A program made the translations under genes and the position numbers. This document shows, piece by piece, positions 6,458 through 63,069 of a stretch of 63,329 nt of DNA. The stretch lies in assembly GCF_018476525.1 (NCBI RefSeq), contig NZ_JAHCST010000014.1:141619-204947 (forward strand), written 5' to 3'. Under the pieces are notes generated by a model. The model was not told where the DNA came from. It did not search any database and saw only the letters and a program-made list of their open reading frames with translations. This DNA is from Acrocarpospora catenulata (GTDB lineage: Bacteria > Actinomycetota > Actinomycetes > Streptosporangiales > Streptosporangiaceae). Position 1 is the first letter of the stretch; each line of letters opens with the position of its first letter.

Positions 6458-6461
6458 TCTT

Positions 6462-30120: not shown

Positions 30121-30130
30121 TCCTCGTCTT

Positions 30131-47897: not shown

Positions 47898-47944
47898 CGC
47901 GACCCGCCAGGCGTCGCGTGTGATCGCTTGAGGGGTGGGGCCAC
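47894..47944 (-). CDS. possible 16-residue leader peptide
   Basis: GTG start 5 nt after AAGGAG, 16 codons (VAPPLKRSHATPGGSR), TGA overlapping the GTG start of the permease gene. No better ribosome site exists for the permease, so translation through this short frame may supply the ribosomes. Too short to judge by itself. Confidence 0.3.
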   Translation of the reverse strand: MAPPLKRSHATPGGSR

Positions 47945-47976
47945 GCTTTCTCCTTGGCGAGTCACGATGATTCTGA

Positions 47977-48003
47977 GGATCCAAAAACGTCGATGTCGGA
48001 TCC
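47977..48003. promoter_or_regulatory. paired GGATCC operator, site 1
   Basis: GGATCC at 47977 and again at 47998, 21 bp apart (two helical turns), 80 nt upstream of the permease start and just beyond the end of the RidA gene. Confidence 0.7.
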
Positions 48004-48048
48004 GAAACTACTGGGCGTGCGTATCGGCCGTGTTACAGCTTGGCCTCG

Positions 48049-48546
48049 TCACACCGCCTCCCGGCTCTCGAAGGTCGGCCACAGCTCGACGGAGTTGCGC
48101 CGGGAGAGGCCGGTCACGCCCATGGTGGCACGGGCGGTGATGCCGATCTCGGGGCCGAACACCTCCAGGAACAGATCGGACATCCCCGCCGCGACCAGGT
48201 GATGCTCCTCGAACTCCGGTACGGCGGCGACGAACACCTGGACCCGGGGGATGGCGGTCACCTCGTCCAGGGAGCCTATGGCGTACCTGACCATACCGAG
48301 GCAGTTGACGGCCGCCTGCCGGGCGGAGGCGTAGCCCTGTTCGACGGTCAGGCCGGCGCCGAGCACGCCCGGGTGGAGGCGTTCGCCGTCCCGGGACTCC
48401 GAGGTGATCCCGCCGAGCAGGACCAGGCGCCCGGACCGGTGGAACGCCTTCACTTTGCCGTAGCGCTGTCCGTACGGCGGGTTGGCGTAGTCGGGGATGG
48501 CGAGCCCGAGCTCGGCCACCCGCTGCTCTGCGGTCAAGTCGGTCAC
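48049..48546 (-). CDS. RidA/YjgF-family protein
   Basis: 165 residues from GTG 48546 with GAGGAG upstream. RidA-like: KAFHRSGRLVLLGGI near the start, and the C-terminal ITARATMGVTGL with the Arg that in RidA proteins holds the substrate carboxylate. Members hydrolyse enamines/imines or act as ring-product amidohydrolases (RutC-like). Divergent from a phosphotriesterase-like gene with a paired operator between them. Confidence 0.88.
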   Translation of the reverse strand: MTDLTAEQRVAELGLAIPDYANPPYGQRYGKVKAFHRSGRLVLLGGITSESRDGERLHPGVLGAGLTVEQGYASARQAAVNCLGMVRYAIGSLDEVTAIPRVQVFVAAVPEFEEHHLVAAGMSDLFLEVFGPEIGITARATMGVTGLSRRNSVELWPTFESREAV

Positions 48547-48580
48547 AGCACTCCTCTGAACGGCGTACGGCCCTATTATT

Positions 48581-48607
48581 GGATCCCAAGTTGGCGATTG
48601 GGAATCC
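48581..48607. promoter_or_regulatory. paired GGATCC operator, site 2
   Basis: GGATCC at 48581 and GAATCC at 48602, again 21 bp apart, between the divergent RidA and phosphotriesterase-like genes. TATTAT (48574-48579) lies 7 nt before the first hexamer, exactly as at site 6. Confidence 0.7.
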
Positions 48608-48675
48608 ATAATTCGGACTTTTTGGCTGTGACGCCCCCGCGCCACCCCCTTCCCCAGCCAGACCGGAGGTATCGC

Positions 48676-49698
48676 ATGGCTGCGCTCACCAGCGTCAACA
48701 GCGTGACGGGACCGATCGCACCCGCCGAACTCGGCGTGACCCTGCCGCACGAGCACGTCTTCATCAACATGCTGCCGACCGCCCCCAGGGACGGCCTGCT
48801 CAACGTCTGGGAGGAACAGGAGGCCGAGCTGCGCCGGTACGTCGAGGCCGGCGGAACCACCATCCTCGACGTCACCAACGGCGAGCTGAGCGAACTCGCC
48901 GCACCGCTCTTCTGGGGCGAGGAGGTCGGCATGAGCCCCCACCAGGACCCGGTCACCGGCTCACGGTCGCCCGCCAACGTGCTGGCCACCAGGGCGATGG
49001 CCGAGACCGTCGGGCTCACCGTGGTGCTCGGCACCGGCCACTACCACGACAGCTACCTGAACAGACAGTGGTTCGAGACCACGCCGACCAACCGGCTGGC
49101 GGACTTCCTGATCCGCGACCTGGTCGAGGAGATCCCGGGCACCGGGGTGCGCGCGGGCTTCCTGGGCGAGATCGCGGCCGACCACGCCTACGTCACCACG
49201 GCCGAGGAGCGCTCCTTCCGCGCCGCAGGCCGGGCCGCGCGGGAGACCGGCGTCATGATCAGCACCCACGCGCCGACCCATCCCGTCGGCCTGGCCCAGC
49301 TCGACATCCTGACCGAGGAGGGCGTGCCGCCGGAGCGGATCGTCGTCGGGCACGCCGACACGGTCAAGCACATCCGCTACTCGCTCGAACTCGCCCGCCG
49401 GGGCGTGTTCGTCCAGTACGACTGCCTGATGACCTGCCGGATCGGCGGGCACCTGGTCATGCCGGAGCTGGAACGCCGCATCTCCTACCTGCTCCAGCTG
49501 GTGGACGCCGGTTACGCCGACCAGATCCTCCTCTCCCAGGACGTGTGCGCCCGCTCGCACCTGCACCTCAAGGGCGGCCCCGGCTACGCCTTCCTGTTCA
49601 CCGACTTCTTCCCGCTGGCCGTGGAACGCGGGCTCGACCCCGGCCTGATCCGCAAGTTCACCGTGGACAATCCCCGCCGGGCGCTGTTCGGCGCCTGA
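48676..49698 (+). CDS. phosphotriesterase-family hydrolase (intact metal site)
   Basis: 340 residues; CGGAGGT precedes ATG 48676. Metal site complete: LPHEHVF, FLGEIAAD (bridging Glu), ISTHAPTH, IVVGHADTV, LLSQDVCAR. Members are lactonases or amide/phosphoester hydrolases. The substrate is probably a lactone or cyclic amide intermediate of region 3. Monocistronic; convergent with the amidase gene. Confidence 0.92.
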   Translation: MAALTSVNSVTGPIAPAELGVTLPHEHVFINMLPTAPRDGLLNVWEEQEAELRRYVEAGGTTILDVTNGELSELAAPLFWGEEVGMSPHQDPVTGSRSPANVLATRAMAETVGLTVVLGTGHYHDSYLNRQWFETTPTNRLADFLIRDLVEEIPGTGVRAGFLGEIAADHAYVTTAEERSFRAAGRAARETGVMISTHAPTHPVGLAQLDILTEEGVPPERIVVGHADTVKHIRYSLELARRGVFVQYDCLMTCRIGGHLVMPELERRISYLLQLVDAGYADQILLSQDVCARSHLHLKGGPGYAFLFTDFFPLAVERGLDPGLIRKFTVDNPRRALFGA

Positions 49699-49709
49699 CC
49701 GGCGGGGGC

Positions 49710-51155
49710 TCAGTCCGGAATGGCGGTCGGCGCGCTGCCGACGAGGCCGAGTGCCTTCTCGATCGCCGCGCCGATCGCCAGGAGCCGTGCGTCGCCGCGC
49801 GACGGGCCGACCACCTGGAGGCCCACGGGCAGCCCCGCCTCGGTGAAACCGCCCGGGGTGACGAGGGCGGGGTGGCCGGTCGCCGTGATCCGGTTGGCGA
49901 CCAGCTGCCAGCGGAAGTACCGGTCGAAGCGCACCCCGTCGATCTCGGGTACCCACTCCAGCTCCGCCGGGGGAGGCGGCACCGGGGTCGCGGGCAGCAC
50001 CAGCGCGTCCACGTCCGCCAGCAGGCGGGCGGTGTCCCGGAACAGTTCGGTGCGCCACGCGAACGCCTCGGCGAGCGTACGCGCGCTGGTCCCGCGGCCC
50101 TGTTCCACGTTGCGCAGGAAGTTCTCGCGGTAGTCCGCGCGCGCGGCCTCGGGCAGCGCGTCCACCCGCTCGTGGCCGTAGGAGAAGAACTCGAACATCT
50201 CGATCGTCTCCCAGGCCTGGTCGGCGCGGGAGAAGTCCGGTTCGCGGTCCATGACGGTCGCGCCGGCGGACTCCAGGGCGGCGCGGGCCCGTGCGTGCAC
50301 GGCGCGGATCTCCGGGTCGATCGGCAGGCCGCCGACGTCGGCGCTCCAGGCGAGGCGGAGCCCGCGCAGGTCGAGTTCGTCCAGGCAGGCCAGCCCGTAC
50401 GGATCCTCGATCCAGGACAGCGGCCACCGGCGGTCGTGCCCCGCGATCCCGCTCAGCAGCAGGGCCGCGTCGGCCGAGTCGCGGGCCATCGGGCCGAGCA
50501 CCCCGTGCGGGCTCCAGGCGTTGCCGGGACGGCCGCTCGGCACGGCTCCCGGGGTCGGGCGCAGGCCGACCACGTTGCAGAACGCCGCCGGGTAGCGGAT
50601 GCTGCCGCCGCTGTCGGAGCCGTCCGCGATCGGCAGCATCCCGCTGGCCAGGGCGGCCGCGGCCCCGCCGCTGCTGCCCCCGGCGTGCCGGGTGAGGTCC
50701 CACGGGTTGCGGGTGGTGCCGAAGACGGGGTTGAAGGTCAGGGTGCCGAGGCCCATCTCGGGGGTGTTGGTCTTCCCGATGATGAGCGCCCCGGCGCCGC
50801 GGAGGTGTTCGGCCAGGACGCTGTCGTGTGCCGCGGGCGGGGCGTCCGCGTGGACCGCGGAGCCGTGCACCGTCGGCAGGCCGGCGACGTCGACGAGGTC
50901 CTTCACCGCGGTGGGCAGCCCGTGCAGTGGGCCCAGCTCGTCCCCACGGGCGACGGCGCGGTCCGCCTCTTCCGCCATCGCCAGCGCCGTCTCCCGTGGC
51001 AGGGCGGAGACGATCGCGTTGAGCGAGCCGTTGAGCTGGTCGATGCGGTCGAGGTGGGCACGCATCACCTCGACGGCGGAGACGCGCCGCTCCCTGATGG
51101 CCGCCGCGAGGTCACGGGCCGGCCAGCGGTGCAGGGCGTCGGGGGAAGTGGTCAT
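49710..51155 (-). CDS. amidase (amidase-signature family)
   Basis: 481 residues. Ser-cisSer-Lys triad: Lys in PTAVKDLVDVAG, the two Ser in HAGGSSGGAAAALASG and the SDSGGSIRYPAAFC stretch. Hydrolyses amides (relatives include AtzF, GatA and urea-carboxylate hydrolases). Last gene of a leftward operon of three amide-related hydrolases; start overlaps the amidohydrolase stop by one base. Confidence 0.94.
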   Translation of the reverse strand: MTTSPDALHRWPARDLAAAIRERRVSAVEVMRAHLDRIDQLNGSLNAIVSALPRETALAMAEEADRAVARGDELGPLHGLPTAVKDLVDVAGLPTVHGSAVHADAPPAAHDSVLAEHLRGAGALIIGKTNTPEMGLGTLTFNPVFGTTRNPWDLTRHAGGSSGGAAAALASGMLPIADGSDSGGSIRYPAAFCNVVGLRPTPGAVPSGRPGNAWSPHGVLGPMARDSADAALLLSGIAGHDRRWPLSWIEDPYGLACLDELDLRGLRLAWSADVGGLPIDPEIRAVHARARAALESAGATVMDREPDFSRADQAWETIEMFEFFSYGHERVDALPEAARADYRENFLRNVEQGRGTSARTLAEAFAWRTELFRDTARLLADVDALVLPATPVPPPPAELEWVPEIDGVRFDRYFRWQLVANRITATGHPALVTPGGFTEAGLPVGLQVVGPSRGDARLLAIGAAIEKALGLVGSAPTAIPD

Positions 51156-52489
51156 CAGGACTCCCGGAAGACGGTTCGGCCGCCGACCTCGGTACGGAGC
51201 ACGCGTACCGAACGGAGGTCGTCGGCGGGCAGGGCGGTGGGGTCGCGGTCGACGGCGATCCAGTCGGCCAGGCGCCCGGCGCGCAGGACGCCGCGGTCGG
51301 CGCCCGCGAACGCGGCGTCGGCGGCGGAGCGGGTGTATCCGGCCAGCGCCTCCGCGACGGTGATCGCCTCGGTCGGGCCGAGCGGGTCGTCCCTGCGGTC
51401 GACGCGCCGGGTCACCGCCGTCCACATCAGCTGCCAGGGGTCGAAAGGGAAGAACGGCCCGTCGGAGCCGAGGGCCACCCTGGCCCCGGCGTCGAGCCAG
51501 GACCGGAGTGGGTTGATCGTGTCGGTCCGCGCGCCCAGCTCCTCGGCCAGCCGCGCGCCGTTGAACCAGGTGATGGACGGCTGCGCGCTCGCCACCAGAC
51601 CGAGCTCCGCGGCCCGGGCGATCGTGGCGGGGGCGACGTCGAGGTAGCCGTGGATGATCTGGAACCGGCCGTCGCGCAGCGAGCGCTCCCCGGCCGCGCG
51701 GGCGAGCAGGTCGACCACCTTGGCGACGGCGCCGCCGCCGACCGCGTGCACGCCCATCGACCAGCCGTACTCAATGCAGAAGCGGGCGAACTCGGCGAAG
51801 TCCTCGTCCGCGAGGAGCTGCCGTCCCGGCGACCCGGTGGACGGCCACGGCGCGTCCAGCAGCGCCTCGCTCTTCAGACCCTCGCCGTCGAAGTAGACCT
51901 TCACCCCGCCGATCCGCAGCACGTCATCGCCGAACCCGGTGTGCAGGCCGAGCCCGCTCAGCCGCCCGATCGCGTCCTCGACGGTGGGCGCCCGCGGCGT
52001 GCCCAGCCCGGGGTACGGCATCGCCGTCACCCGCACGGTGAGCTCGCCGCGCCGCCACGACTCCTGGTATCCGCGCAGCTCCGGCTCGGTGACCGCCGGA
52101 TCGACGACACCGGTGATCCCGAGCCCGTGGAGCAGCGGCTGGACCCGGCGCAGGGCGTCGGCGCGTTCCGCCGGCGACCGGGGGACGTCCCACTCCTCGC
52201 CGTGCCAGTCCCTGGCCATGATCTCCAGGAAACCGGGGACGTCGGGTTCGGCCCCGCCCGCGTCGTGCTCGAACTTGAGCGCCGCCCGGGCCAGGTGCAG
52301 GTGGGCGTCGATCAGGCCGGGCAGTACGGCGCCCGCGTCCGGCCTCTCGACGGCGGCCTCCGGGTAGGCGGCGCGCACCTCCGCGAGGGATCCGACGGCG
52401 GCGATCCGGCCCGCGACCACGGCCATGGCCTCGGCGACCGGCCGCTCGGGATCCATCGTGACCAGGTGCCCGGCCACGATCGTCGTCAT
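51155..52489 (-). CDS. YtcJ-like amidohydrolase
   Basis: 444 residues of the amidohydrolase_3 group: GLIDAHLHLA, GVKVYFDGEG (Lys expected to bridge the metals), MGVHAVGGGA, IIHGYLD, LGSDGPFFPFDP. Likely paralogue of the protein at 60313 (both open with AGxxxTMDPxRPxAEAM). Substrate could be an N-acyl, N-formyl or cyclic amide compound. It overlaps the gamma-glutamyltransferase stop by 4 nt. Confidence 0.92.
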   Translation of the reverse strand: MTTIVAGHLVTMDPERPVAEAMAVVAGRIAAVGSLAEVRAAYPEAAVERPDAGAVLPGLIDAHLHLARAALKFEHDAGGAEPDVPGFLEIMARDWHGEEWDVPRSPAERADALRRVQPLLHGLGITGVVDPAVTEPELRGYQESWRRGELTVRVTAMPYPGLGTPRAPTVEDAIGRLSGLGLHTGFGDDVLRIGGVKVYFDGEGLKSEALLDAPWPSTGSPGRQLLADEDFAEFARFCIEYGWSMGVHAVGGGAVAKVVDLLARAAGERSLRDGRFQIIHGYLDVAPATIARAAELGLVASAQPSITWFNGARLAEELGARTDTINPLRSWLDAGARVALGSDGPFFPFDPWQLMWTAVTRRVDRRDDPLGPTEAITVAEALAGYTRSAADAAFAGADRGVLRAGRLADWIAVDRDPTALPADDLRSVRVLRTEVGGRTVFRES

Positions 52490-54021
52490 CGGTGTCCCCC
52501 CTCGATCAGCTCGCCCGCGCCGTCGGCGCGGGGATCGCTCGCGGCGTCCAGCCGGGTCGTCCCGTCGGGCCCCACCCGGCGGCGAGTGAGCTGGACGTGC
52601 CCGGCGATGTCCTCAGGGCCGGTGCGTTCGTCGACCGGCAGCCCCATGGACCGCGCCGCGCGGAGCACCGCGTCGAGGCCGGGTTCGGCGACCAGGGTGG
52701 TGCGGTCGTGCCCGAGGTCCACGTCGCCGACGACCCAGCGTGGCTCGGCGAGCACCTCCGCGGGATCCTTGCCGGGGTCGGCGAGCAGGACGGGGGCGAC
52801 CTGCGCCAGGATCCACGGCTGGGCGCGGCCTCCTTGGCAGCCGATCGCGAGCACCCCGTCAGGGGAGTCGACGATCAGCGGGCAGAGCGTGTGCGGCGGC
52901 CGGGAGCCGGGGGTCAGCCGGGCCGGGCCGGCCGGGTCGAGACTGAAGGCCGCGCCGCGGTTGTGCAGGACGATGCCGGTCTCGGGTTCGAGCAGGCCCG
53001 CGCCGAAGGTCTGGAACACACTCTGGATCAGCACCACCGAGAGCCCCGAGTCGTCGCTCGCGGAAATCGCCACCGTGTCCCCATGGGCGGGCGGCTCCGA
53101 CCCCGGGGCCGTGGCGAGGGCCAGCGGGTTGAGGGCCAGGATCGCCGGGATGTTCACCGGCGCTGTTCGCGGGTCGCCGAGGTGGGAGGCGCGTACCTGG
53201 ATGGCCCGCAGGCAGGCGTCGAGCAGGGAGCCGGACGCGGCTGCGCTCGCCACGCCGAGCAGGAGGGGCCCAGCAGTCGGGGGCGGGGCGGCCCACCAGG
53301 TGTCCTGGCCGATCCGGGCGGACAGCGCGGGGACGACCTCCGCCTGGTGGGCGGCGAAGTCGGCGGCGGTGTGCAGGCCCCCGGTGGCGCGGAGTCCGGC
53401 GACCAGGCGTTCGGCGATCTCGCCGTGGTAGAAGCTCGCCGGGTCGTCGGCCAGGTGCGCGAGAGTGCGGGCGAGCGCGGGCTGGGTGAAGCGTGCGCCG
53501 GTGGGCAGCAGGTCGCCGTCGGGCGCGAAGAGGGCGCGCAGGCCGGGATCGGCGAGTACGGCCTCGCCCCGGCTGTCGAGCGCCCGCCGCAGCCCGTCCG
53601 TGACGGTGGATCCCCGCTCGGCCAGCCCTTGGGCGTACCGGAGAGAATCGCTCAGGGGGAGCCGGGCGCCCAGGCCCGCCAGTGCCTGCCAGCCTGCGAC
53701 GACACCGGGGACGGTGACGGTGTGCGGGCCCTGCCGCGGCATGGCGGGGCCAGGGAGCCGGTCAGAGGTGAGGGCGGCGGGCGCGGCTCCGGCCGACACG
53801 ACGGCCGTCGTCTCCGGGCCGTCCGGTCCGGCTTGGCGGACCAGCGCCACCAGGTCGCCGCCGAGCGCGCACTGGTGCGGGTAGACGACGGTCAGGGCGG
53901 TGGCGGCGGCGAGGGCGGCGTCGAGCGCGTTGCCTCTCGCGGACACCGCGTGCCGGCCGGCGTCGATGGCCGCACGATGTGGTGCCGCTAGGGCAACTTT
54001 GGATCCGATCGGCGTACTCAT
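52486..54021 (-). CDS. gamma-glutamyltransferase-like protein
   Basis: 511 residues, no signal peptide, so cytoplasmic (classical GGTs are exported). NAxDAAxA-type start (RGNALDAALAAATAL) and the autoprocessing Thr region AHGDTVAISASDDSG, followed by FGAGLLEPETGIVLHNRGAA. Cytoplasmic GGT-like enzymes cleave gamma-glutamyl or other amide bonds, including gamma-glutamylated amines in amine catabolism. First gene of the operon; a paired operator covers its start codon. Confidence 0.9.
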   Translation of the reverse strand: MSTPIGSKVALAAPHRAAIDAGRHAVSARGNALDAALAAATALTVVYPHQCALGGDLVALVRQAGPDGPETTAVVSAGAAPAALTSDRLPGPAMPRQGPHTVTVPGVVAGWQALAGLGARLPLSDSLRYAQGLAERGSTVTDGLRRALDSRGEAVLADPGLRALFAPDGDLLPTGARFTQPALARTLAHLADDPASFYHGEIAERLVAGLRATGGLHTAADFAAHQAEVVPALSARIGQDTWWAAPPPTAGPLLLGVASAAASGSLLDACLRAIQVRASHLGDPRTAPVNIPAILALNPLALATAPGSEPPAHGDTVAISASDDSGLSVVLIQSVFQTFGAGLLEPETGIVLHNRGAAFSLDPAGPARLTPGSRPPHTLCPLIVDSPDGVLAIGCQGGRAQPWILAQVAPVLLADPGKDPAEVLAEPRWVVGDVDLGHDRTTLVAEPGLDAVLRAARSMGLPVDERTGPEDIAGHVQLTRRRVGPDGTTRLDAASDPRADGAGELIEGGHR

Positions 54022-54027
54022 GGATTC
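54001..54027. promoter_or_regulatory. paired GGATCC operator, site 3
   Basis: GGATCC at 54001 and GGATTC at 54022, 21 bp apart, spanning the start codon of the leftward GGT-like gene and about 130 nt before the rightward MFS gene. A possible -10 hexamer TACAAT (54095) for the rightward gene is nearby. Confidence 0.6.
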
Positions 54028-54160
54028 AGTATGCGGAGAATCACGTCAAAATGGGATGAACATCAGCCAACTGTGTTGATAATCGAGACATGGATACAAT
54101 CGTCGCGTCTCATAGCTTCCCCGGCGAGAACGCGGATCTCAACTCAGCCGACCGCCGCGG

Positions 54161-55432
54161 ATGAGGCGGGGTGGCGCGCCGCGCTTCTCGACGCCCGCCT
54201 TCTGGCTGATCTTCGTTTCGTCCTCGCTCAGCAACGTCGCCTACAGCAGCACGGCGCCCGTGCTGCCACGCTACGTGGTGGAGGTGCTCGGCGGCGGCCC
54301 CGCCCTGGTCGGGGCGCTGGTCGGGCTCTCCCCGATCGCGTCGCTCGTGGTCCAGCCGTTCGCCGGCGTACTGGCCGACCGGTACGGCTACCGCGTGGTC
54401 TCGGTGGCCAGCGGCCTGCTCGGCTCCGTCGGCGTGCTGTTCCTGGTCCTGTCGGCCACCGTCCCCGGCGTCGCCGCGGGCCGGGTGCTCTTCGGGGCGG
54501 GCGGCTCGGCGATCGCGACGGCGCTGATGGCCTGGGTGCTCGCGATCGTCCCCGCCGAGCGGCGCGGGCAGGCGCTGGGGGTGTTCGGCCTCGGCGTGTG
54601 GATCGGGCTCGCCCTCGGGCCCGTGGTCGGCGAGAACACCTTCCATCTGGCCGGGTTCGGCGCGGTCTGGCTGGTCTGCGGGGCGCTGCAACTGGGGTCC
54701 GTGCTCGCCGCGCTGGTCGTCCGGCACCGGGCCGACGGATTCCCGCCGGAGGAGACCGCGGTCGTGACGGGGGAGAACCTGGCCGGTGGCGCGGCGGGTC
54801 CCACCGACGGCGCGCCCAATAGTGCGCCCAGTGCGCCCATCACGCCCGGCTGGCGGGTCGCGGTGCGGTCGGTGACCCTCGCCGGAGTGGTCGCGGGCCT
54901 GGTCTGGGCCACCGAGGGTGTGCTGCTCACCTACCTGGTGCTGCACCTGGAGTCCCGGGGGATCCGGCCGGACGGCGTGTTCGGCGGGGCGAGCGTGTTC
55001 ACCGTCTTCGCGGCCTCGGTGGTGCTGGCCCGGCTGGCGGTCGGAACGCTGCCCGACCGGATCGGCGCCCGGCGGTCGGCCGCGCTGGCGTTGAGCTGCG
55101 TGGCCGCCGGGCTGCTGGTGGTCGCGGCGGCGGGGTCGTTCGCGCTGGCCGCCGTCGGCGCGGTGGTGCTCGGGGTGGGGTTCGCCCCGTTGTTCCCGTC
55201 CCTCACCATGATCGCCACAGAACGGCTGCCGTCGAGCCTGCGCGCCACCGGGCTCGGCTTCTTCAACGCGTACATCGCGGTCGGGCTGGCCGGGGGTTCG
55301 TTCGTCGGCGGTGTGCTGTCCGGCTGGTGGGGGGAGTGGTCGGCGTTCGTGGCCGCCGCCGCCCTGGCCGTGGCCGGGCTCGGCGTGCTCGCCGCCGAGC
55401 CTGGACACGGCCTGCGCACCTGGCGCCGCTGA
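54161..55432 (+). CDS. MFS transporter
   Basis: 423 residues with 12 likely membrane segments and MFS loop motif GVLADRYGYRVV between segments 2 and 3. Resembles drug/metabolite exporters or importers of the DHA1 type. Divergent from the GGT operon and probably under the same regulator; may move the substrate or a toxic intermediate. Confidence 0.9.
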   Translation: MRRGGAPRFSTPAFWLIFVSSSLSNVAYSSTAPVLPRYVVEVLGGGPALVGALVGLSPIASLVVQPFAGVLADRYGYRVVSVASGLLGSVGVLFLVLSATVPGVAAGRVLFGAGGSAIATALMAWVLAIVPAERRGQALGVFGLGVWIGLALGPVVGENTFHLAGFGAVWLVCGALQLGSVLAALVVRHRADGFPPEETAVVTGENLAGGAAGPTDGAPNSAPSAPITPGWRVAVRSVTLAGVVAGLVWATEGVLLTYLVLHLESRGIRPDGVFGGASVFTVFAASVVLARLAVGTLPDRIGARRSAALALSCVAAGLLVVAAAGSFALAAVGAVVLGVGFAPLFPSLTMIATERLPSSLRATGLGFFNAYIAVGLAGGSFVGGVLSGWWGEWSAFVAAAALAVAGLGVLAAEPGHGLRTWRR

Positions 55433-56041: not shown

Positions 56042-56043
56042 GC

Positions 56044-56409
56044 TCAGGCCTCCTTGTAGACGACGTAAACCTTGCGCAGCCGCTCGTGCACGGTCCACTC
56101 CCCGGTCCAGCCGATGGGGAAGTAGGCGGTGCTGCCCGCGGCCAGTTCTACCGGCTCCCCGCCGTCGCGCCGCACGGTCATCCGCCCGGCCAGCACGTGG
56201 ATGATCTCGCCACGGGTGTCGAACTCCCACCGGGAGCGGCCCGGCTCGCTCTCCCAGATGCCGGAGATGACGGTGCGCGCCTCGTTGGTGAAGTCCACCC
56301 GGCTGCGCACCAGCACCTCGCCGTCGAGCGGGGTGGCGCTCGGCGGCGCGAGGGGTTTCTCGGCGAGTTCGCCCGCGGCGACCTCCAGCGGCCGATTGGT
56401 CAGAGTCAC
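56044..56409 (-). CDS. cupin-domain protein
   Basis: 121 residues from GTG 56409 (GAGGAG upstream). Single small beta-barrel with RSRWEFDTRGEIIHVLAGRM and STAYFPIGWTGEWTVHERLR, the pattern of (S)-ureidoglycine/ectoine-type and DUF861 cupins. May be a small lyase, hydrolase or binding protein. First gene of a two-gene operon beside the dimethylformamidase genes. Confidence 0.85.
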   Translation of the reverse strand: MTLTNRPLEVAAGELAEKPLAPPSATPLDGEVLVRSRVDFTNEARTVISGIWESEPGRSRWEFDTRGEIIHVLAGRMTVRRDGGEPVELAAGSTAYFPIGWTGEWTVHERLRKVYVVYKEA

Positions 56410-56443
56410 GGTGGCACTCCTCGGGGGGTTAGACGTCAGATCT

Positions 56444-56470
56444 GGATCCTAAATCATCTTGCTAGGATCC
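56444..56470. promoter_or_regulatory. paired GGATCC operator, site 4
   Basis: GGATCC at 56444 and 56465, exactly 21 bp apart, centred in the 91-bp gap between the leftward cupin and rightward dimethylformamidase operons. Confidence 0.75.
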
Positions 56471-56500
56471 AGAATGGTCACTTGTCTGAGGGGAGCCCGC

Positions 56501-56833
56501 ATGGTCCTGAGCGTCCAGGACGAGTTCATCCGCGCCAACCGGATCCGCGCCCTCGTCACCCCGGAGCTGCTGGCCGAGGCACGCGCCAACCCGCCGCGCG
56601 GCAGGCAGTCCGCCGCGCTGGTCGAGGTGCTGGACTTCCTGCGCCGCAACCCCGACCCCGAACTGCCGCGGTACGCCGTGCTGCGGACACCGGACGGCTT
56701 CGCGGTCGTCCGCCGCGCCCCGGTCCGCGGCGCGCCACCGACGCCGGACGGTGCCGATCGGTACCCCACCCGCCAGGAGGCCGAGCACGCGGTGCTGCTG
56801 CGCAGGCTGCGGGACTACGAGGTGCTTTCGTGA
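56501..56833 (+). CDS. dmfA1: N,N-dimethylformamidase-like small subunit
   Basis: 110 residues from ATG 56501 with TGAGGGGAG upstream. Mostly helical, no known catalytic residues. Identified mainly from position directly before, and overlapping, the large subunit, and from size near the ~130-residue small subunit of known dimethylformamidases (RNPDPELPRYAVLRTPDGFA). It would stabilise the large subunit. Confidence 0.75.
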   Translation: MVLSVQDEFIRANRIRALVTPELLAEARANPPRGRQSAALVEVLDFLRRNPDPELPRYAVLRTPDGFAVVRRAPVRGAPPTPDGADRYPTRQEAEHAVLLRRLRDYEVLS

Positions 56834-59064
56834 GCGGGCGTCTCGGGGTAATGGGGTACACCGACCGGATCTCCTACCGGCCAGGCGACGACGTGACCTG
56901 CTACGTGAGCACCACCGCGGCCGAGTGGACCGCCCGGCTGGTCCGCCTGTTCGCGCTGTCGATCCCGAGCGCGGGTATGCCACGGCGGATCGAGCCGGTG
57001 CCAGGGGTCGCTCCGATCACCCGTCCGGGGATCGCGCAGGAGACAGTCGTGGGCTCGTCTGTGCGAGTCGAGGACTTCCCTGTTGTTGGACCCGCCGGGC
57101 TGACCGTGGCCGTCGCGGTGATGCCGACCCGGCCGGGTGTGGACGCCCAGTCGGTGCTCGCGCACTGGGACGGGACGGCGGGCTGGACGCTCGGTCTGGC
57201 CGCCGACGGGCGGGCGCGGCTCGTGGTGGCAACGGAGGCGGGCGTGGTCGAGCTGGTCGCCGGGGCGCCGCTGGTGTCCGGGTGCTGGTACGAGCTGCGG
57301 GCCTCGATCGGCGGCGTCGCAGGGGCGGCCGTCGAGCTGGAGGTCGCCTCGTGTGGCACGTTCGAGTCCGACAGGGTGGTGCTGCCCCGCACCGCCCCGG
57401 CTCAGGCCGAGACCCGGCTGCCCGGGGATCCCCTTCTCCCGGAGGGCGTCCCACTGCGCTGGGCGCGGCGGTCGGAGCGCGGTGAGCGGGATGAGCGTTA
57501 CGACGGGCGGGTCGAGAACCCGGTCATCGTCGGGCGGGCGGGGGCGCCCGGCGACCGGGGAACGCTCGCCGCGCATCCGGACGTCGTCGCCGCCTGGGAT
57601 CTGGCGGCGGGTATCGGTCCCAGGGGCGTCAGCCGTACCGGGCATGTCGCCGACGCCGGGCCGTACGGGCGGCACGGGACGGCGGTACACCACCCGCAAC
57701 GCGCAGTGACCGCGTCAGGCTGGACGGGAGACGTCACCGACTTCCGGTTCGCTCCCGATCAATACGCCGCGATCCACTTCCACCGGGACGATATGACCGA
57801 CTGCGGCTGGCGTGACCAGGCTGTACTCCGCCTGCCGGACGACCTGCCGAGCGGCGTCTACGCGCTGGAGCTGACCGACACCGACGGCGCCGCCGACACG
57901 GTGCCGGTGTTCGTCCGCCCGGCCGAGGGGGCGCGCCCCGCGCCGGTGTTGCTCGTCCTGCCCACCAACAGCTACCTCGCCTACGGCAACGACCACGTCG
58001 GGGTGGACAGCCCGCGCACCCAGGTGTGGACCCAGCAGGTCCCGGCCCTGGACGACTTCGAGCTGTTCCGGGACGCCCACCGCGAGCTCGGCTACTCCCT
58101 GTACGAGGCGCACGCCGACGGCACCGGCGTCTGCTACTCCAGCTGGCGGCGCCCGCTGCTCACCCTGCGCGAGCGCGTCTACGACCACAACGCGCCGGTC
58201 TGGCAGTTCACCGGCGACATGCAGCTGGTCGACTGGCTCGACCGGGCCGGCCTCGCGTTCGACGTCGCCACCGACCGGGACCTGCACCGCGAGGGCGTCG
58301 GCCTGCTCTCGGAGTACGCCGTGGTCCTCACCGGGACGCATCCGGAATATCCCACCCTGGAGATGCTGACCGCCTACGAGGAGTACGCGGCCACCGGCGG
58401 GCGGCTCTGCTACCTCGGCGGCAACGGGATGTACTGGGTGACCGGCGTCGATCCGCAGGACGAGCAGGTGATCGAGATCCGGCGGTGGGGCGGCACCCAG
58501 GCCTGGCTGGCCGAGCCCGGCGAGTACCACCTGGGGTTCACCGGCCAGCAGGGCGGCATCTGGCGGTTCCGTGGCCGGGCGCCGCAGAAGACCTTCGGGG
58601 TCGGGTTCGTCGCCGCGGGCAACCCGGGCTCGGGGGCCCCGTACCGCCGGATCGCCTACGACCCCGCCACCGACTGGGTGTTCGACGGCGTCCGCGCCCG
58701 GGACTTCGGCGCCGACGGCGTGTCGGGCGGCGCGGCCGGGCTGGAGATCGATTCGGCCGGCCCGCTGCTGGGCACCGCGGACGAGGCGATCGTGCTCGCG
58801 ACCTCGGTCGGACACGACGACGACATGCTGGAGGCCAGGGAGAACTTCAACATGACCAGCCGAGTGCTGGGCGGCGGGCGGAACCCGCGGGTCCACGCGG
58901 ACCTGGTGCTCGTGCCCCGGGCCGGTGGGGGAGCGGTCTTCTCGGTCGGGTCCATCGCGTTCGCGGGGGCGCTCCGTGAGCTCGACGGGGAGGTCAGCCG
59001 GCTGCTCGGCAACGTGGTCCGCAGGTTCGCCTCGGGGGCGCCGGTGCTGGACGAGCCGGGGTGA
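56830..59064 (+). CDS. dmfA2: N,N-dimethylformamidase-like large subunit
   Basis: 744 residues from GTG 56830 (GTGA overlap; ATG 56851 also possible). N-terminal beta-sandwich domains with a laminin-like concanavalin segment (~70-290), then the catalytic region. Candidate mononuclear iron ligands match the known Tyr/His/Glu/Glu set: the Tyr in LPTNSYLAYGND, His-x-Glu in TGTHPEYPT and Glu in EARENFNM. The known enzyme splits dimethylformamide into formate and dimethylamine; the true substrate here may be another formamide or N-alkyl amide. Identification from memory of the family, domain length and these motifs. Confidence 0.85.
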   Translation: MSGRLGVMGYTDRISYRPGDDVTCYVSTTAAEWTARLVRLFALSIPSAGMPRRIEPVPGVAPITRPGIAQETVVGSSVRVEDFPVVGPAGLTVAVAVMPTRPGVDAQSVLAHWDGTAGWTLGLAADGRARLVVATEAGVVELVAGAPLVSGCWYELRASIGGVAGAAVELEVASCGTFESDRVVLPRTAPAQAETRLPGDPLLPEGVPLRWARRSERGERDERYDGRVENPVIVGRAGAPGDRGTLAAHPDVVAAWDLAAGIGPRGVSRTGHVADAGPYGRHGTAVHHPQRAVTASGWTGDVTDFRFAPDQYAAIHFHRDDMTDCGWRDQAVLRLPDDLPSGVYALELTDTDGAADTVPVFVRPAEGARPAPVLLVLPTNSYLAYGNDHVGVDSPRTQVWTQQVPALDDFELFRDAHRELGYSLYEAHADGTGVCYSSWRRPLLTLRERVYDHNAPVWQFTGDMQLVDWLDRAGLAFDVATDRDLHREGVGLLSEYAVVLTGTHPEYPTLEMLTAYEEYAATGGRLCYLGGNGMYWVTGVDPQDEQVIEIRRWGGTQAWLAEPGEYHLGFTGQQGGIWRFRGRAPQKTFGVGFVAAGNPGSGAPYRRIAYDPATDWVFDGVRARDFGADGVSGGAAGLEIDSAGPLLGTADEAIVLATSVGHDDDMLEARENFNMTSRVLGGGRNPRVHADLVLVPRAGGGAVFSVGSIAFAGALRELDGEVSRLLGNVVRRFASGAPVLDEPG

Positions 59065-59117
59065 CCGAAATCCGATACCTGTCCTTAACCTACGGATGCA
59101 TCCTAGGCGCTTAAATG

Positions 59118-59144
59118 GGATCCAAGACGCCTCAAACTGAATCC
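59118..59144. promoter_or_regulatory. paired GGATCC operator, site 5
   Basis: GGATCC at 59118 and GAATCC at 59139, 21 bp apart, in the 137-bp gap before the binding-protein gene. A further partial repeat (GGATGCATCC, 59094-59103) lies just upstream. Confidence 0.7.
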
Positions 59145-59201
59145 ACGATCCCCTGAGGTATCTGCGCCACCGCAGCGTCCCGACTTGGAGGCTCGAAGCC
59201 T

Positions 59202-60323
59202 ATGTCCGCTCCACGGCCGCTCCGTCCCGCTCTCTCACGTCCTGCCCGCCGCCTGTTCTCCGCGGTGGCGCTCTCCCTTACCGCCGCGCTCGCGCTGAGC
59301 GCCTGCGGCGGCGGCACCGAGTCCACCACGAGCGGCGCGCCCGGCACGGCCGCACCGTCCGGCGGGCAGAAGCTGTCCGGAAAGATCATCTGGGCCGACT
59401 TCGGCGGCCCCACCAACAAGGCCCGCCAGCAGACCTACTTCGACGGGTTCACCGGCGACACCGGGGTGGAGGTGGTCTCCACCGTCGAGGAGGACGCGCT
59501 CGTCGACACCATGCTCAACGGCGGCGCGGGCGACTACGACGCCATGCACGTCGGCCTCGACTTCGCCTACCGGTACAAGGACAACATCCTCTCCCGGCCC
59601 GCCGGCGCCACCCTGGACCAGCAGCTGCCGGAGGACATCAGGGACAAGGCCTGGGGCACCTTCCTGGTCGGCCACGCCCAGGGCTACCTGACCAGTACCT
59701 TCCCGAACGGCGGCCCGCAGACCTGGGCCGACTTCTGGGACGTCAAGAAGTTCCCCGGCAAGCGGGCCTGGCCCGGCACCCCCGGCAGCTACGACAGCAC
59801 CTGTGAGGTCGCGCTTCTCGCCGACGGCGTGGCCCCCGACCAGCTCTACCCGCTCGACCTCGACCGGTGCACCAAGAAGCTGAACGAGCTGCGGCCGAAC
59901 ATGGTCTTCTACAACTCCTACCCGGAGATCCAGCAGCTGATCGCCTCCGGGACCGCCGCGGTCGCGCTCGGCCCGAGCGGTCAGTACGCCGCGCTCCGCA
60001 ACGGCGGCCAGGACGTCACCGTCTCCTGGAACCAGGCGGTCGTCGCGCCGAACGTGATGGTCACCCCGGCCAAGGCGCCGAACGCGGACAACATCTTCGC
60101 GCTCGCGGAGTGGATGAGCGACCCGCAGCGGCAGGCCGAGTTCGCCAAGCTGACCGGCTACGGCCCCGGCAACCCCGACGCGTTCCAGCACATGACCAAG
60201 GAGACCCTTGACAACGTCGTCACCGCTCCCGCGCACGACAAGATCGTCTGGCAGAACTCCCGTGCGCGTTCGGAGCAGCGGGACGCTCTCCTCGCCTGGT
60301 ACACGGGCTGGCTTGGCCAGTAG
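59202..60323 (+). CDS. ABC importer substrate-binding lipoprotein, PotD type
   Basis: 373 residues. Signal peptide with lipobox (LALSACG), then a PotD-like fold (KIIWADFGGPTNKARQQTYF; TWADFWDVKKFPGKRAW). No permease or ATPase adjoins it, while the PotABC-type genes at 45.1-47.9 kb lack a binding protein; matching operators support the pairing. Likely ligand: an amine, betaine-like or opine-like N-compound. Confidence 0.9.
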   Translation: MSAPRPLRPALSRPARRLFSAVALSLTAALALSACGGGTESTTSGAPGTAAPSGGQKLSGKIIWADFGGPTNKARQQTYFDGFTGDTGVEVVSTVEEDALVDTMLNGGAGDYDAMHVGLDFAYRYKDNILSRPAGATLDQQLPEDIRDKAWGTFLVGHAQGYLTSTFPNGGPQTWADFWDVKKFPGKRAWPGTPGSYDSTCEVALLADGVAPDQLYPLDLDRCTKKLNELRPNMVFYNSYPEIQQLIASGTAAVALGPSGQYAALRNGGQDVTVSWNQAVVAPNVMVTPAKAPNADNIFALAEWMSDPQRQAEFAKLTGYGPGNPDAFQHMTKETLDNVVTAPAHDKIVWQNSRARSEQRDALLAWYTGWLGQ

Positions 60324-61941
60324 CCCGGATCCGGCCGGCCCGGCGACCGTGGTCGCCGGGCGCATCCGGACCATGGACCCGGCGCGCCCGCTGGCCGAGG
60401 CGATGCTCGTGGTCGGCGACCGGATCGCCGCCACGGGCGACCTCGCCGAGGTCCGCGCGCTGGCGGGCGAGCACGTCCCCGTCCACCAGGCGGCGGGGCC
60501 CGTGCTCCCCGGGTTCATCGACTCCCACATCCACGTGCTCACCGTCGGTCTGGAACGCCGCCGGCTGACCATCTCGGAGGCGGGGTCGGTGGCCGAGGTG
60601 GTCGACCGGATCCGGGACTGGCTCGCGGCCAACCCCGGCCACGACTGGGTCGTGGTCGGGGCCCACTTCCACGAGGAGGACCTCGCCGAGGGCCGGCTGC
60701 CCACCGCGGCCGATCTGGACCCCGTTTCCCCGGGCGTGGCCCTCTACCTGGACCGGCGTACCCACGACGCGATCGTGAACAGCGAGGCGATGCGCCGCGC
60801 CGGGATCGACCGCGGCACTCCCGACCCGCCCGGCGGGCGCATCGAGCGGACCCCGGACGGCGAGCCGACCGGCGTCCTGATCGAGCGCCCGGCGGCCGAC
60901 CTGGTCTTCTCGCTGATCCCGCCGCCGTCGGCGGAGGAACTGGACGCCGCCCTGGACGAGGCCCAGCGTCACCTGCACTCGCTGGGCGTCACCGGGGCCA
61001 GCGAGCCCGGCCTGTTCCCCCACGAGATGGCCGTCTACCAGGACGCCTGGCGGACCGGACGGCTCACCATGCGGACCATGGGCATGCCGCTGGCCGACAC
61101 CGACATCCCACCCGAGCAGTTCCTGCGTGGGCTCGGCGGGCTCGGGGTAAGGACAGGGTTCGGCGACGAGCTGTTCAAGCTGGGGCCGCTCAAGGTCTAC
61201 CTGGACGGCACCGGCGGCTTCGGCACGGCGCTGCTCTCCCGGCCCTGGCCGGGCACCGACGGGTACCACGGCAACCAGACCTGCGGGTCGGAGACCTTCG
61301 AGGAACTCGTCCGGTTCTGCGCACGCGAAGGCTGGTCGATGGCGATCCACGCCGTCGGCGACGAGGCGGTCCGGGTCGCCCTGGCCGCGTTCGAGCGCGC
61401 GGACGCGGAGTGGCCCATCCGTGACCTGCGGTTCTCGATCATGCACTGCTACCTCTGGCCGTCGGCGGAGAGCATGGCGCTGGCCGAGCGGCTCGGCGTG
61501 CTGCTCTCCACCCAGCCGGCCATGCAGTGGCGGGTGGCGTCCGGGATCGCCGCGCGGTTCGGGGAACCGGCCGCCGGGACCGCGCCGCTGCGGGACTGGT
61601 TCGACGCCGGGGTGACGGTGGCGGGCGGTTCCGACGGCCCGGACTTCCCGATGTCGCCGCTGTTCGGCATGTGGCAGGCCAGGACCCGGCGGGTCCGCGG
61701 CCTGGAAGAACCGCTCGGGCCCGAGCAGGCGATCACCGCCGAGGAGGCGCTCCGCATGTACACCGTGGACGCCGCCAGGTACTGCTTCGCCGACGGGGAA
61801 CGCGGGTGGCTCGCGCCGGGCGCGCTCGCCGACTGGGTGGAGCTCAGCGCGGACCCGGTGGAGACCGAGGACGAGCGGGTCGCCGACATCCAGGTGCTCC
61901 GGACCGTCGTCGGCGGCCAGACCGTGTACGCGGATCGATAG
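60313..61941 (+). CDS. YtcJ-like amidohydrolase
   Basis: 542 residues if TTG 60313 (overlapping the binding-protein stop) is used, 530 from GTG 60349; neither has a clear ribosome site. Motifs: GFIDSHIHVLTVG, LGPLKVYLDGTG (Lys bridge), MAIHAVGDEA, IMHCYLWP, GGSDGPDFPM. Paralogue of the protein at 51155 with an additional ~100-residue insertion near residue 90. Precedes the phosphotriesterase-like gene in the same operon. Confidence 0.88.
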   Translation: MASSPDPAGPATVVAGRIRTMDPARPLAEAMLVVGDRIAATGDLAEVRALAGEHVPVHQAAGPVLPGFIDSHIHVLTVGLERRRLTISEAGSVAEVVDRIRDWLAANPGHDWVVVGAHFHEEDLAEGRLPTAADLDPVSPGVALYLDRRTHDAIVNSEAMRRAGIDRGTPDPPGGRIERTPDGEPTGVLIERPAADLVFSLIPPPSAEELDAALDEAQRHLHSLGVTGASEPGLFPHEMAVYQDAWRTGRLTMRTMGMPLADTDIPPEQFLRGLGGLGVRTGFGDELFKLGPLKVYLDGTGGFGTALLSRPWPGTDGYHGNQTCGSETFEELVRFCAREGWSMAIHAVGDEAVRVALAAFERADAEWPIRDLRFSIMHCYLWPSAESMALAERLGVLLSTQPAMQWRVASGIAARFGEPAAGTAPLRDWFDAGVTVAGGSDGPDFPMSPLFGMWQARTRRVRGLEEPLGPEQAITAEEALRMYTVDAARYCFADGERGWLAPGALADWVELSADPVETEDERVADIQVLRTVVGGQTVYADR

Positions 61942-61949
61942 GACACAGC

Positions 61950-62969
61950 ATGCCCATTCACACCGTTCTCGGGCCCATCGACCCCGCCGAGCTGGGGCCC
62001 ACCTCGATGCACGAGCACCTGCTCAGCGACCTGCGGGTGTGGAGCAGGCCGAGCGCGGAGGAACCGCCGCCAGGGGTGCCGATCGGCCCGGAACTCCTCG
62101 GCTACCTGCGGTGGAACGCCCTGTCCATCCCCGAGAACCTGGTGCTGCACGATCCGGACGTCGCGGTGCGGGAGCTGGCGGACGCGCGGGCCGCCGGCGC
62201 GAGCGCCGTGGTCGAGCTGACCCTGGAGGGCATGGGACGGCGGCTGGCCGAGCTGCCGGACATCTCCCGCCGCAGCGGCGTGCACATCTGCGTCGGCGGC
62301 GGCTTCTACGTGGAGCAGACCCACCCGGATCGGGTACGCGCCGCCGACGTGGACGGCGTCACCGAGATGCTCCTGGACGAGCTGCGGAACGGCATCGGCG
62401 GCACCGGCATCCGCCCGGCGCTGCTCGGTGAGATCGGCACCAGCTGGCCGGTCACCGACGGCGAGTGGAAGGTGCTCCGCGCGGCCGGCCGGGCCGGGGC
62501 GGAGACCGGCGCCGCCGTCTACGTGCACCTGTCCTTCCGTGGCAAACCCGCCATCCCGGTGCTGGAGGCGCTGGTCGAGGAGGGGATGGACCCCTCGCGA
62601 GTGGTCATCGGCCACCTCGACGAGTACTTCGACCCCGGCTACCACCGGGAGGTCGCGCAGTCCGGGGCGATGCTCGCCTACGACACCTTCGGCTCGGACT
62701 TCCTGTACGGCGACCCCGCGCAGCGCAACCCCACCGACGCGGAACGCTTCGAGATGGTGGCCTGGCTGCTGTCCGAGGGCTTCGCGGACCGGCTGGTCAT
62801 CGGGGCCGACGTGTGGGCGCAGGCCAACCTCAAGCACAACGGCGGGTTCGGCTACGACCACCTGTTCCGGCGGATCGGCCCCGGGATCACCCGGCTGGCG
62901 GGCGGGGACGGCAAGGTCGTCGAACGGATCCTCGTCGAGAACCCGCGCCGCCTACTGGACCGGCCGTAA
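61950..62969 (+). CDS. phosphotriesterase-family hydrolase (intact metal site)
   Basis: 339 residues from ATG 61950. Complete metal site: TSMHEHLL, LLGEIGTS, VYVHLSF, VVIGHLDEY, VIGADVWAQ. Closely related along its length to the degenerate protein at 44104. Possible lactonase or amide hydrolase. Last gene of the binding protein-amidohydrolase-hydrolase operon. Confidence 0.92.
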   Translation: MPIHTVLGPIDPAELGPTSMHEHLLSDLRVWSRPSAEEPPPGVPIGPELLGYLRWNALSIPENLVLHDPDVAVRELADARAAGASAVVELTLEGMGRRLAELPDISRRSGVHICVGGGFYVEQTHPDRVRAADVDGVTEMLLDELRNGIGGTGIRPALLGEIGTSWPVTDGEWKVLRAAGRAGAETGAAVYVHLSFRGKPAIPVLEALVEEGMDPSRVVIGHLDEYFDPGYHREVAQSGAMLAYDTFGSDFLYGDPAQRNPTDAERFEMVAWLLSEGFADRLVIGADVWAQANLKHNGGFGYDHLFRRIGPGITRLAGGDGKVVERILVENPRRLLDRP

Positions 62970-63042
62970 CCGGGTCCTGAATCGCCATGGTGGGCCAACA
63001 ACCGACCCCCTGGGCGTAAAGGCGCGATCAAATCGTATTATT

Positions 63043-63069
63043 GGATCCAAGGGTTGAAAGTTAGGATCC
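63043..63069. promoter_or_regulatory. paired GGATCC operator, site 6
   Basis: GGATCC at 63043 and 63064, 21 bp apart, before the aldehyde dehydrogenase gene. TATTAT (63036-63041) precedes the first hexamer by the same 7 nt as at site 2, suggesting the same promoter-operator geometry. Confidence 0.75.

What the first reader, a model, noticed from the sequence alone, without database searches (positions are those of the whole stretch)
47977..63069. Six GGATCC-N15-GGATCC repeats define an undescribed regulon
Pairs of GGATCC (second copy sometimes GAATCC or GGATTC) spaced exactly 21 bp start-to-start occur at 47977, 48581, 54001, 56444, 59118 and 63043. Each is at a promoter region, and between them they cover every transcription unit of region 3. 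Two of them share TATTAT at the same 7-bp offset. Two helical turns between palindromic half-sites suggest a regulator binding as a dimer of dimers. No regulator gene is present between 44 and 63 kb.
Basis: seen in the sequence. Interest (0 to 1): 0.82.

Follow-up and report, generated by a model that had tools for sequence, protein, structure and literature searches.

The report
GntR-type regulon with paired GGATCC operators
Six paired GGATCC sites mark the promoters of an amine- and amide-breakdown gene cluster in a soil actinomycete, and comparison with related bacteria points to a GntR-family switch protein, encoded just past the end of the window, as the protein that binds them.

Summary
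All six GGATCC-N15-GGATCC pairs are at the stated places; about 0.1 is expected in 15 kb. The window ends at a contig end. A contig of the same genome overlaps it by 128 bases and, 3.7-4.4 kb on, carries a GntR/FCD regulator gene with an exact pair in its own promoter region. Two congeners keep seven sites: 84 of 84 half-site columns identical against 579 of 763 other intergenic columns. Of 80 named actinobacterial loci with the regulator's orthologue, 79 carry a pair; spacing 21 gives 206 pairs, other spacings a median of 14; in 71 of 80 the nearest pair lies 58-202 bp upstream of the regulator. The box is ATTGGATCCAAT, sometimes in threes at 21-bp steps. Best reading: an autoregulated, metal-site FCD repressor of an amine/amide catabolic regulon, binding as paired dimers. 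Binding, repression, oligomeric state and inducer are inferred. Six searches of an open-access library found no report of it.

The parts
47977..48003 (.). Operator 1 (exact), upstream of the leftward ABC-permease/ATPase/PTE genes
   Evidence: conserved in G002 and G004
48581..48607 (.). Operator 2 (1 mismatch), between RidA-like gene (-) and phosphotriesterase-family gene (+)
   Evidence: conserved
54001..54027 (.). Operator 3 (1 mismatch), over the likely start codon of a gamma-glutamyltranspeptidase gene (-), divergent MFS gene (+)
   Evidence: conserved
56444..56470 (.). Operator 4 (exact), between cupin/isochorismatase genes (-) and dimethylformamidase genes (+)
   Evidence: conserved
59118..59144 (.). 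Operator 5 (1 mismatch), upstream of the solute-binding protein/amidohydrolase/PTE genes
   Evidence: conserved
63043..63069 (.). Operator 6 (exact), 27 bp before the ATG of an aldehyde dehydrogenase gene; half-sites conserved 12/12 while the spacer is only 5/15 conserved
44104..45249 (-). Phosphotriesterase-family hydrolase (ORF limits; true start uncertain)
   Evidence: Pfam PTE 2.2e-34
45111..46898 (-). ABC transporter ATPase with TOBE_2 (ORF limits)
46172..47014 (-). ABC permease
   Evidence: BPD_transp_1 8.2e-14
47019..47984 (-). ABC permease (ORF limits; start near 47899 judged by eye)
   Evidence: BPD_transp_1 1.4e-08
48049..48942 (-). RidA/YjgF-like protein (ORF limits; start near 48547 judged by eye)
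   Evidence: YjgF_endoribonc 1.4e-09
48676..49698 (+). Phosphotriesterase-family hydrolase
   Evidence: PTE 3.1e-49
49710..51425 (-). Amidase (ORF limits)
   Evidence: Amidase 5.6e-96
51155..52489 (-). Amidohydrolase
   Evidence: Amidohydro_3 1.9e-49
52486..54021 (-). Gamma-glutamyltranspeptidase
   Evidence: G_glu_transpept 1.3e-83
54161..55432 (+). MFS transporter
   Evidence: MFS_1 2.7e-50
55433..56230 (-). Isochorismatase-like hydrolase (ORF limits)
   Evidence: Isochorismatase 1.9e-39
56044..56409 (-). EutQ-like cupin
   Evidence: Cupin_3 2.2e-19
56501..56833 (+). Probable N,N-dimethylformamidase small subunit (inferred from position; the ORF 56459-56833 gave no Pfam hit)
56086..59064 (+). 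N,N-dimethylformamidase beta subunit-like (ORF limits; gene occupies the 3' part)
   Evidence: DMFA2_C 2.2e-85
59202..60323 (+). ABC solute-binding protein
   Evidence: SBP_bac_8 4.9e-29
60208..61941 (+). Amidohydrolase (ORF limits)
   Evidence: Amidohydro_3 1.1e-90
61527..62969 (+). Phosphotriesterase-family hydrolase (ORF limits)
   Evidence: PTE 2.7e-61
63097..63329 (+). Start of aldehyde dehydrogenase, cut by the contig end; continues as L005:10881-12254 (-). Beyond the window on contig C171 (locus L005): copper amine oxidase 5593-7560 (-), operator 7565-7591, GntR/FCD regulator about 7763-8476 (+; start uncertain), operator 5458-5484 before the Rieske/GS-like genes

Best explanation
The GGATCC-N15-GGATCC elements are operators of a GntR-family, FCD-subfamily regulator encoded 3.7-4.4 kb beyond the window (L005, about 7763-8476), which represses its own gene and an amine/amide-catabolic regulon. 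In this genome that regulon comprises ABC and MFS transporters, phosphotriesterase-type hydrolases, amidase, amidohydrolases, gamma-glutamyltranspeptidase, dimethylformamidase-like genes, RidA, cupin, isochorismatase-like hydrolase, aldehyde dehydrogenase, aminotransferase/oxidase, copper amine oxidase and a Rieske/glutamine-synthetase-like pair. Each half (ATTGGATCCAAT) is itself a palindrome that one dimer would read; two dimers sit two helical turns apart on the same DNA face, as a tetramer or as cooperating dimers, over or next to the promoter and start codon. A pathway metabolite would bind at the conserved Asn/His metal site of the FCD domain and release the DNA. Shown by computation: sites, conservation, association with the regulator gene, fold family. 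Inferred: binding, repression, oligomeric state, inducer.
For: Regulator gene with the motif in its own promoter region. Seven sites conserved in two congeners, 84/84 half-site columns vs 579/763. 80 named loci with the orthologue: 79 with a pair at most 1 mismatch from GGATCC-N15-GGATCC; spacing 21 gives 206 pairs (71 exact), the other 52 spacings from 8 to 60 have median 14, max 38 at 42 bp. In 71 of 80 loci the nearest pair lies 58-202 bp before the regulator's match start. Co-occurrence: TTGGATCCAA-N13-GGATCC (at most 1 mismatch) in 6 of 6 regulator-positive (E <= 1e-50) and 6 of 291 regulator-negative genomes of the family, 4 of 4 and 8 of 390 in the class sample; Fisher 1e-9 and 5e-7 (G000 and other genomes are in both samples). 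Of 29 other FCD loci of the same genome, 2 hold a pair with at most 1 mismatch, both with GC-rich spacers. 32 orthologue rows form one clade, 99/99, against 27 control and 4 distant rows. Conserved N143, H147, H193, H215 resemble the Zn ligands N137/H141/H192/H214 of Atu1419. AlphaFold2 model (pLDDT 87.2) closest by E-value to Atu1419 6za7, a palindrome-binding tetramer.
Against: No binding or expression data. Repression is inferred from position only; TAnnnT enrichment inside the spacer is modest (offset 15: 21 seen, 8.4 expected; offset 14: 27 and 18.3) and coupling to a -35-like hexamer is weak (best: 5 of 27 at 18 bp for offset 14, against 12 of 261 overall; most combinations nothing). In 9 of 80 loci the nearest standard pair is not just upstream of the regulator; in a search of -400 to +100 with up to 3 mismatches 8 of those 9 show a 20- or 22-bp-spaced, 2-mismatch or weak-partner variant, some of which may be chance, and L115 shows none. 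The operator departs from the GntR signature GT..AC. Third boxes at 21-bp steps suit cooperating dimers as well as a tetramer. One of the two control FCD loci with a pair (L134) is the control nearest to the orthologue clade in the tree. The 80 loci were fetched by the regulator, so that test is conditioned on it; the pattern-first genome scans are not.
Confidence: 0.9

Rival explanations
1. The same regulator binds the same sites but works as an activator (or as a dual regulator) rather than a repressor.
For: Some FCD proteins activate (CitO, start of abstract seen in the listing). Some sites lie about 57-77 bp before the likely start codon (window sites 1, 2 towards the PTE gene, 5).
Against: Several sites lie within about 35 bp of a likely start codon or over it (sites 3, 4, 6 and the copper amine oxidase site), which leaves little room for an upstream activator site unless the mRNA is leaderless. 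The regulator's own gene carries a pair in 71 of 80 loci, as is usual for autorepressors (recalled).
Confidence: 0.18
2. The sites belong to another regulator that travels with the cluster, or to an AraC/XylS-type protein that binds direct repeats 21 bp apart.
For: 21-bp direct-repeat spacing is known for AraC-type half-sites (recalled, no call).
Against: Each half is itself palindromic, which does not fit asymmetric AraC half-sites. No other regulator domain turned up in the 17 window frames and 6 L005 frames scanned. One member each of the gene clusters found in 10 or more of the 82 sources was scanned with Pfam: none is another regulator, but clusters 13 and 23 gave no hit and 22 and 24 were not scanned. 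The long pattern marks regulator-positive genomes far above background.
Confidence: 0.05
3. Chance or a by-product of sequence composition or of a repeat family (GGATCC is also the BamHI site).
For: With up to 1 mismatch 67 places exist genome-wide, 8 of them in this cluster.
Against: Spacing 21 stands alone among 53 spacings; spacers and flanks differ between sites, 199 of 214 37-mers unique; half-sites are conserved while spacers drift.
Confidence: 0.01

Closest known systems
Atu1419 (VanR group, FCD/GntR) of Agrobacterium fabrum (PMC7797058; passages read)
   Same: FCD fold (best Foldseek E-value); an Asn and three His in similar order (4, 46 and 22 residues apart here, 4, 51 and 22 there; compared by spacing, not by alignment); 10-bp palindrome per dimer; tetramer able to hold two palindromes
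   Different: Its palindrome is ATGTATACAT, ours ATTGGATCCAAT; its palindromes in the atu1418-1419 promoter lie 190 bp apart and are bridged by looping, ours are 21 bp apart; about 28% identity in the structural alignment
NanR (FCD/GntR) of E. coli (PMC8012715; passages read)
   Same: Several dimers cooperate on repeated boxes
   Different: NanR boxes are GGTATA direct repeats with dimers about half a turn apart; ours are palindromic boxes two turns apart. NanR cooperativity depends on a 32-residue N-terminal extension; ours has about 12 residues before the conserved part if GTG 7763 is the start (start uncertain)
FadR-subfamily regulons collected by Suvorova et al. (PMC4494728; passages and two sections read)
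   Same: Palindromic A/T-rich operators in divergent promoters; extra boxes near sites
   Different: Their consensus is TKGT/ACMA; the second core base here is G/C (TTGGATCCAA); GGATCC does not occur in that paper's main text (supplements not searched)

Membership tests
GntR family, FCD subfamily | N-terminal GntR winged helix plus C-terminal FCD domain | tested here: met
   Pfam GntR 1.5e-18 and FCD 1.4e-23, both over cut-off; model matches FCD structures
Metal-binding FCD proteins | Asp/Asn and three His ligands | tested here: met
   H147, H193, H215 invariant and N143 at least 90% in 44 orthologues; similar spacing to Atu1419. Metal binding itself not testable
GntR/FadR-type operator | Palindrome with GT...AC core (TKGT/ACMA) | tested here: not met
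   Consensus ATTGGATCCAAT: the T of GT is G and the A of AC is C; palindromy and a 2-bp core are met
Atu1419-like tetramer | Tetramer binding two palindromes | not testable with these tools
   Only the 21-bp pairing supports it; third boxes leave cooperating dimers open
NanR-like cooperative repeats | Direct repeats of an asymmetric box | tested here: not met
   Boxes are palindromic, 21 bp apart
Autoregulated catabolic regulator | Own promoter region carries the operator; targets are catabolic | tested here: met
   71 of 80 loci; target families. Regulation itself, and its sign, not tested
AraC/XylS family | AraC-type gene travelling with the sites | tested here: not met
   None among the 17 window and 6 L005 frames scanned nor among the locus families scanned; not every cluster was scanned

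The most novel reading that the evidence does not exclude
A widespread actinobacterial FCD regulator reads not one palindrome but a 21-bp ladder of two or three GGATCC-cored palindromes, each bound by a dimer on the same DNA face. That would be an operator geometry and a core sequence not described for the GntR family in the papers read here, controlling an unassigned amine/amide (Rieske + glutamine-synthetase-like + copper amine oxidase) catabolic pathway.
Probability: 0.5. Interest if true: 0.55.

Novelty: new variant of a known kind. Interest (0 to 1): 0.45.

Why it matters
It assigns an operator and a regulator to a catabolic regulon found in more than twenty actinobacterial genera (24 genus names), gives a simple sequence handle (paired ATTGGATCCAAT) for finding its members and the unknown substrate, and offers a tractable case of a GntR protein whose core base differs from the GT...AC rule and whose dimers may be held in register over two or three boxes.

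Tried and rejected
AraC-type and chance/BamHI readings were considered and set aside (see rivals). The TATTAT element was tested as a fixed -10 box: not enriched at that offset; TAnnnT inside the spacer is moderately enriched and coupling to a -35-like hexamer is weak, so promoter anatomy stays open. Looser matching (2 mismatches) drowns the signal. A specificity residue was sought (Gln38, at least 90% in 44 orthologues, near the place of Atu1419 Glu34); my control comparison failed: the residue numbers printed are shifted and the pattern caught only 5 of 29 control loci, so no claim is made. Two further pairs in the genome were examined: C67:35087 (exact) lies inside a long ORF; C118:35728 (1 mismatch) lies near a possible start, but the frame I translated, which was not in register with that ATG, showed nothing recognisable; neither is counted, and C118 stays unresolved. 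Of 14 regulator-negative genomes with the long pattern (6 family, 8 class), three have an FCD relative (31-44% identity) within 1.5 kb of it and a fourth at about 4 kb. In the tree the four such rows that could be placed (two from L166, one each from L158 and L207) do not sit directly beside the orthologue clade, with long-branch warnings, and L179 dropped out as too short, so wider use of the motif stays open. (an alignment with five of nine rows in the wrong strand) was discarded and redone. The promoter columns were redone with expectations. Literature: six searches gave no report of this motif or regulon among the papers listed; the library holds open-access papers only, and the lists were cut (15 of 128 papers, 12 of 25). 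The HypR paper (PMC6608401, passages) describes a different motif.
Full report
CHECK OF THE OBSERVATION. A first-order Markov model of the window expects 0.107 such pairs in 15.1 kb, with a maximum of 2 in 300 runs. Within the window the only other pair with at most 1 mismatch is at 19599. Genome-wide there are 67 places with at most 1 mismatch and 5 exact ones; of the 5 exact ones, four belong to this cluster and one (C67:35087) lies inside a 1451-aa ORF. So the loose pattern is not specific by itself; the clustering is the point. The other places, whose list was cut short, were not examined except C118:35728 (unresolved).

THE WINDOW ENDS AT A CONTIG END. The window is contig C46:141619-204947 and the contig is 204,947 bases long. 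The last 128 bases of the window equal the first 128 bases of the reverse complement of locus L005, the end of contig C171, and the aldehyde dehydrogenase cut at the window end continues there. In congeners G002 and G004 the same sites lie on one contig each, which supports the order.

THE REGULATOR. Beyond the aldehyde dehydrogenase and an aminotransferase/oxidase ORF, L005 carries a GntR/FCD regulator (about 7763-8476, +; Pfam GntR 1.5e-18, FCD 1.4e-23) divergent from a copper amine oxidase (5593-7560, -; 3.6e-143). Measured from the window end, its near edge is 3.7 kb and its start 4.4 kb away. An exact pair lies between them at 7565, four bases from the oxidase's ATG. A further pair (one mismatch, with a third, weaker box 21 bp away) lies at 5458 before a Rieske oxygenase gene (ORF start 5385) and a glutamine-synthetase-like gene. 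No regulator domain was found among the 17 frames scanned between 44 and 63 kb.

CONSERVATION. All 84 half-site columns are identical in the three genomes, against 88 of 105 spacer columns and 579 of 763 remaining intergenic columns (Fisher 6e-10, half-sites against the rest). At the aldehyde dehydrogenase the half-sites are 12/12 and the spacer 5/15. The two congeners without the regulator (G001, G003) have 1 and 2 exact matches to the plain pattern and none to the longer pattern.

BEYOND THE GENUS. One scan of the genome-contig collection with an alignment of nine orthologues (A2) returned 80 loci (51-97% identity in the best segment), in 24 named genera, among them Streptomyces, Pseudonocardia, Actinoplanes, Kineosporia, Jiangella, Microbacterium, Rhodococcus and Patulibacter. 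In their 1,596,820 bases, pairs of GGATCC with at most 1 mismatch number 206 at 21 bp; the other 52 spacings from 8 to 60 have median 14, mean 14.8, maximum 38 at 42 bp, i.e. two steps. Exact pairs: 71 at 21 bp, 9 at 22 bp, at most 5 at any other spacing. 79 of 80 loci have a pair. In 71 of 80 the nearest lies 58-202 bp before the regulator's match start; the nine others are L063, L071, L073, L083, L085, L091, L099, L115, L124, eight of which show a 20- or 22-bp, 2-mismatch or weak-partner variant in the -400 to +100 stretch and one (L115) none. These loci were fetched through the regulator, so I also ran the test from the other side. TTGGATCCAA-N13-GGATCC with at most 1 mismatch occurs in 6 of 6 regulator-positive (E <= 1e-50) and 6 of 291 regulator-negative genomes of the family and in 4 of 4 and 8 of 390 of a class sample; the samples share G000 and some other genomes. 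As a further control, 29 of the other 39 FCD matches of the same genome were scanned (the ten weakest had no locus): two hold a pair with at most 1 mismatch (L134, L142), both with GC-rich spacers; L134 is also the control nearest to the orthologue clade.

THE BOX. From 199 unique sites of 214 the symmetrised profile reads ATT-GGATCC-AA-(T/A), i.e. ATTGGATCCAAT, falling to background about seven bases out. A third box (at most 2 mismatches) occurs at the next 21-bp step in 52 of 208 sites downstream and 34 of 208 upstream, against 4-25 at the other offsets tested. The six window sites have no third box.

TARGETS. Gene families heading the sites in the 82 sources include the regulator itself (68 of 214 sites), aminotransferase class V, Rieske oxygenase, a ferredoxin-type reductase, copper amine oxidase, cyclase, ABC transporter parts, aldehyde dehydrogenase, amidohydrolase, gamma-glutamyltranspeptidase, cupin and PTE-type hydrolases (one member of each cluster named). 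Glutamine-synthetase-like ligases are in 45 of 82 sources, creatininase-like in 23, isochorismatase-like in 19, amidase in 13. My gene calls are heuristic (codon-position GC); 186 of 214 sites have an adjacent downstream gene, 28 have none, and 19 of these lie inside an ORF. Together this looks like uptake and stepwise breakdown of amines or amides; the substrate is unknown.

HOW IT PROBABLY WORKS. The regulator looks like a metal-site FCD protein: N143, H147, H193, H215 are kept, spaced 4, 46 and 22, against 4, 51 and 22 for the Zn ligands N137, H141, H192, H214 of Atu1419. The AlphaFold2 model (L045 orthologue, 44 sequences, pLDDT 87.2, pTM 0.81) matches Atu1419 best by E-value (6za7, TM 0.58, rmsd 7.3) and a Brucella GntR structure (7u5q, TM 0.77) best by TM-score among the rows shown; I infer that the low TM to Atu1419 reflects a different domain arrangement. 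Atu1419 is a tetramer whose dimers each hold a 10-bp palindrome. By analogy, one dimer per ATTGGATCCAAT box and two boxes two turns apart put two dimers on the same face. Sites overlap or closely precede likely start codons (27-34 bp at sites 4 and 6, overlap at site 3, four bases at the oxidase), which fits repression by occlusion; sites 1, 2 and 5 lie 57-77 bp away on one side. Relief by a pathway metabolite at the metal site is inference.

KNOWN OR NEW. The operator keeps the palindromy and 2-bp core of part of the GntR family but has GG..CC where the published consensus has GT..AC. Six searches of the open-access library found no report of this motif or regulon among the papers listed; subscription papers and RegPrecise entries could not be searched. 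I call it a new variant of a known kind: an ordinary family, an unusual operator, a regulon I found no description of.

Noticed in passing
L023:5543 and 6006; L024:5519 and 6100: A second locus with two pairs each in A. macrocephala and A. pleiomorpha (G002, G004), at a GMC oxidoreductase gene (beside a gamma-glutamyltranspeptidase gene in G002). No such exact pair was listed in the window's own genome.
   Followed up: partly
L203:8871 and L204:9019 (G681, G647): Near-perfect paired ATTGGATCCAAT before an unscanned membrane-protein-like frame in 1.6-1.8 Mb genomes (49% GC in these loci), without a regulator orthologue at E 1e-50 or a tblastn relative in the 18 kb fetched; another regulator may read the same box.
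   Followed up: partly
L158, L166, L179, L207: Distant FCD relatives (31-44% identity) lie within 1.5 kb (three) or about 4 kb (one) of a matching pair in four regulator-negative genomes.
   Followed up: partly
window 29946-30920: Another GntR/FCD regulator in the window (FCD 2.6e-31) whose 3.4-kb neighbourhood lacks the motif (L125).
   Followed up: yes
L005:8503-11466: One ORF holds both a class-V aminotransferase and a FAD-dependent oxidoreductase (DAO) domain, apparently a fusion.
   Followed up: no
window 44104-45249, 48676-49698, 61527-62969: Three separate phosphotriesterase-family hydrolases in one cluster; why three are kept is unclear.
   Followed up: no
L075, L076, L078, L081, L082, L089 (about 55-90 bp before the regulator): Exact GGATCC pairs at 22 bp beside the regulator in Curtobacterium and Rathayibacter, so one extra base seems tolerated.
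   Followed up: partly
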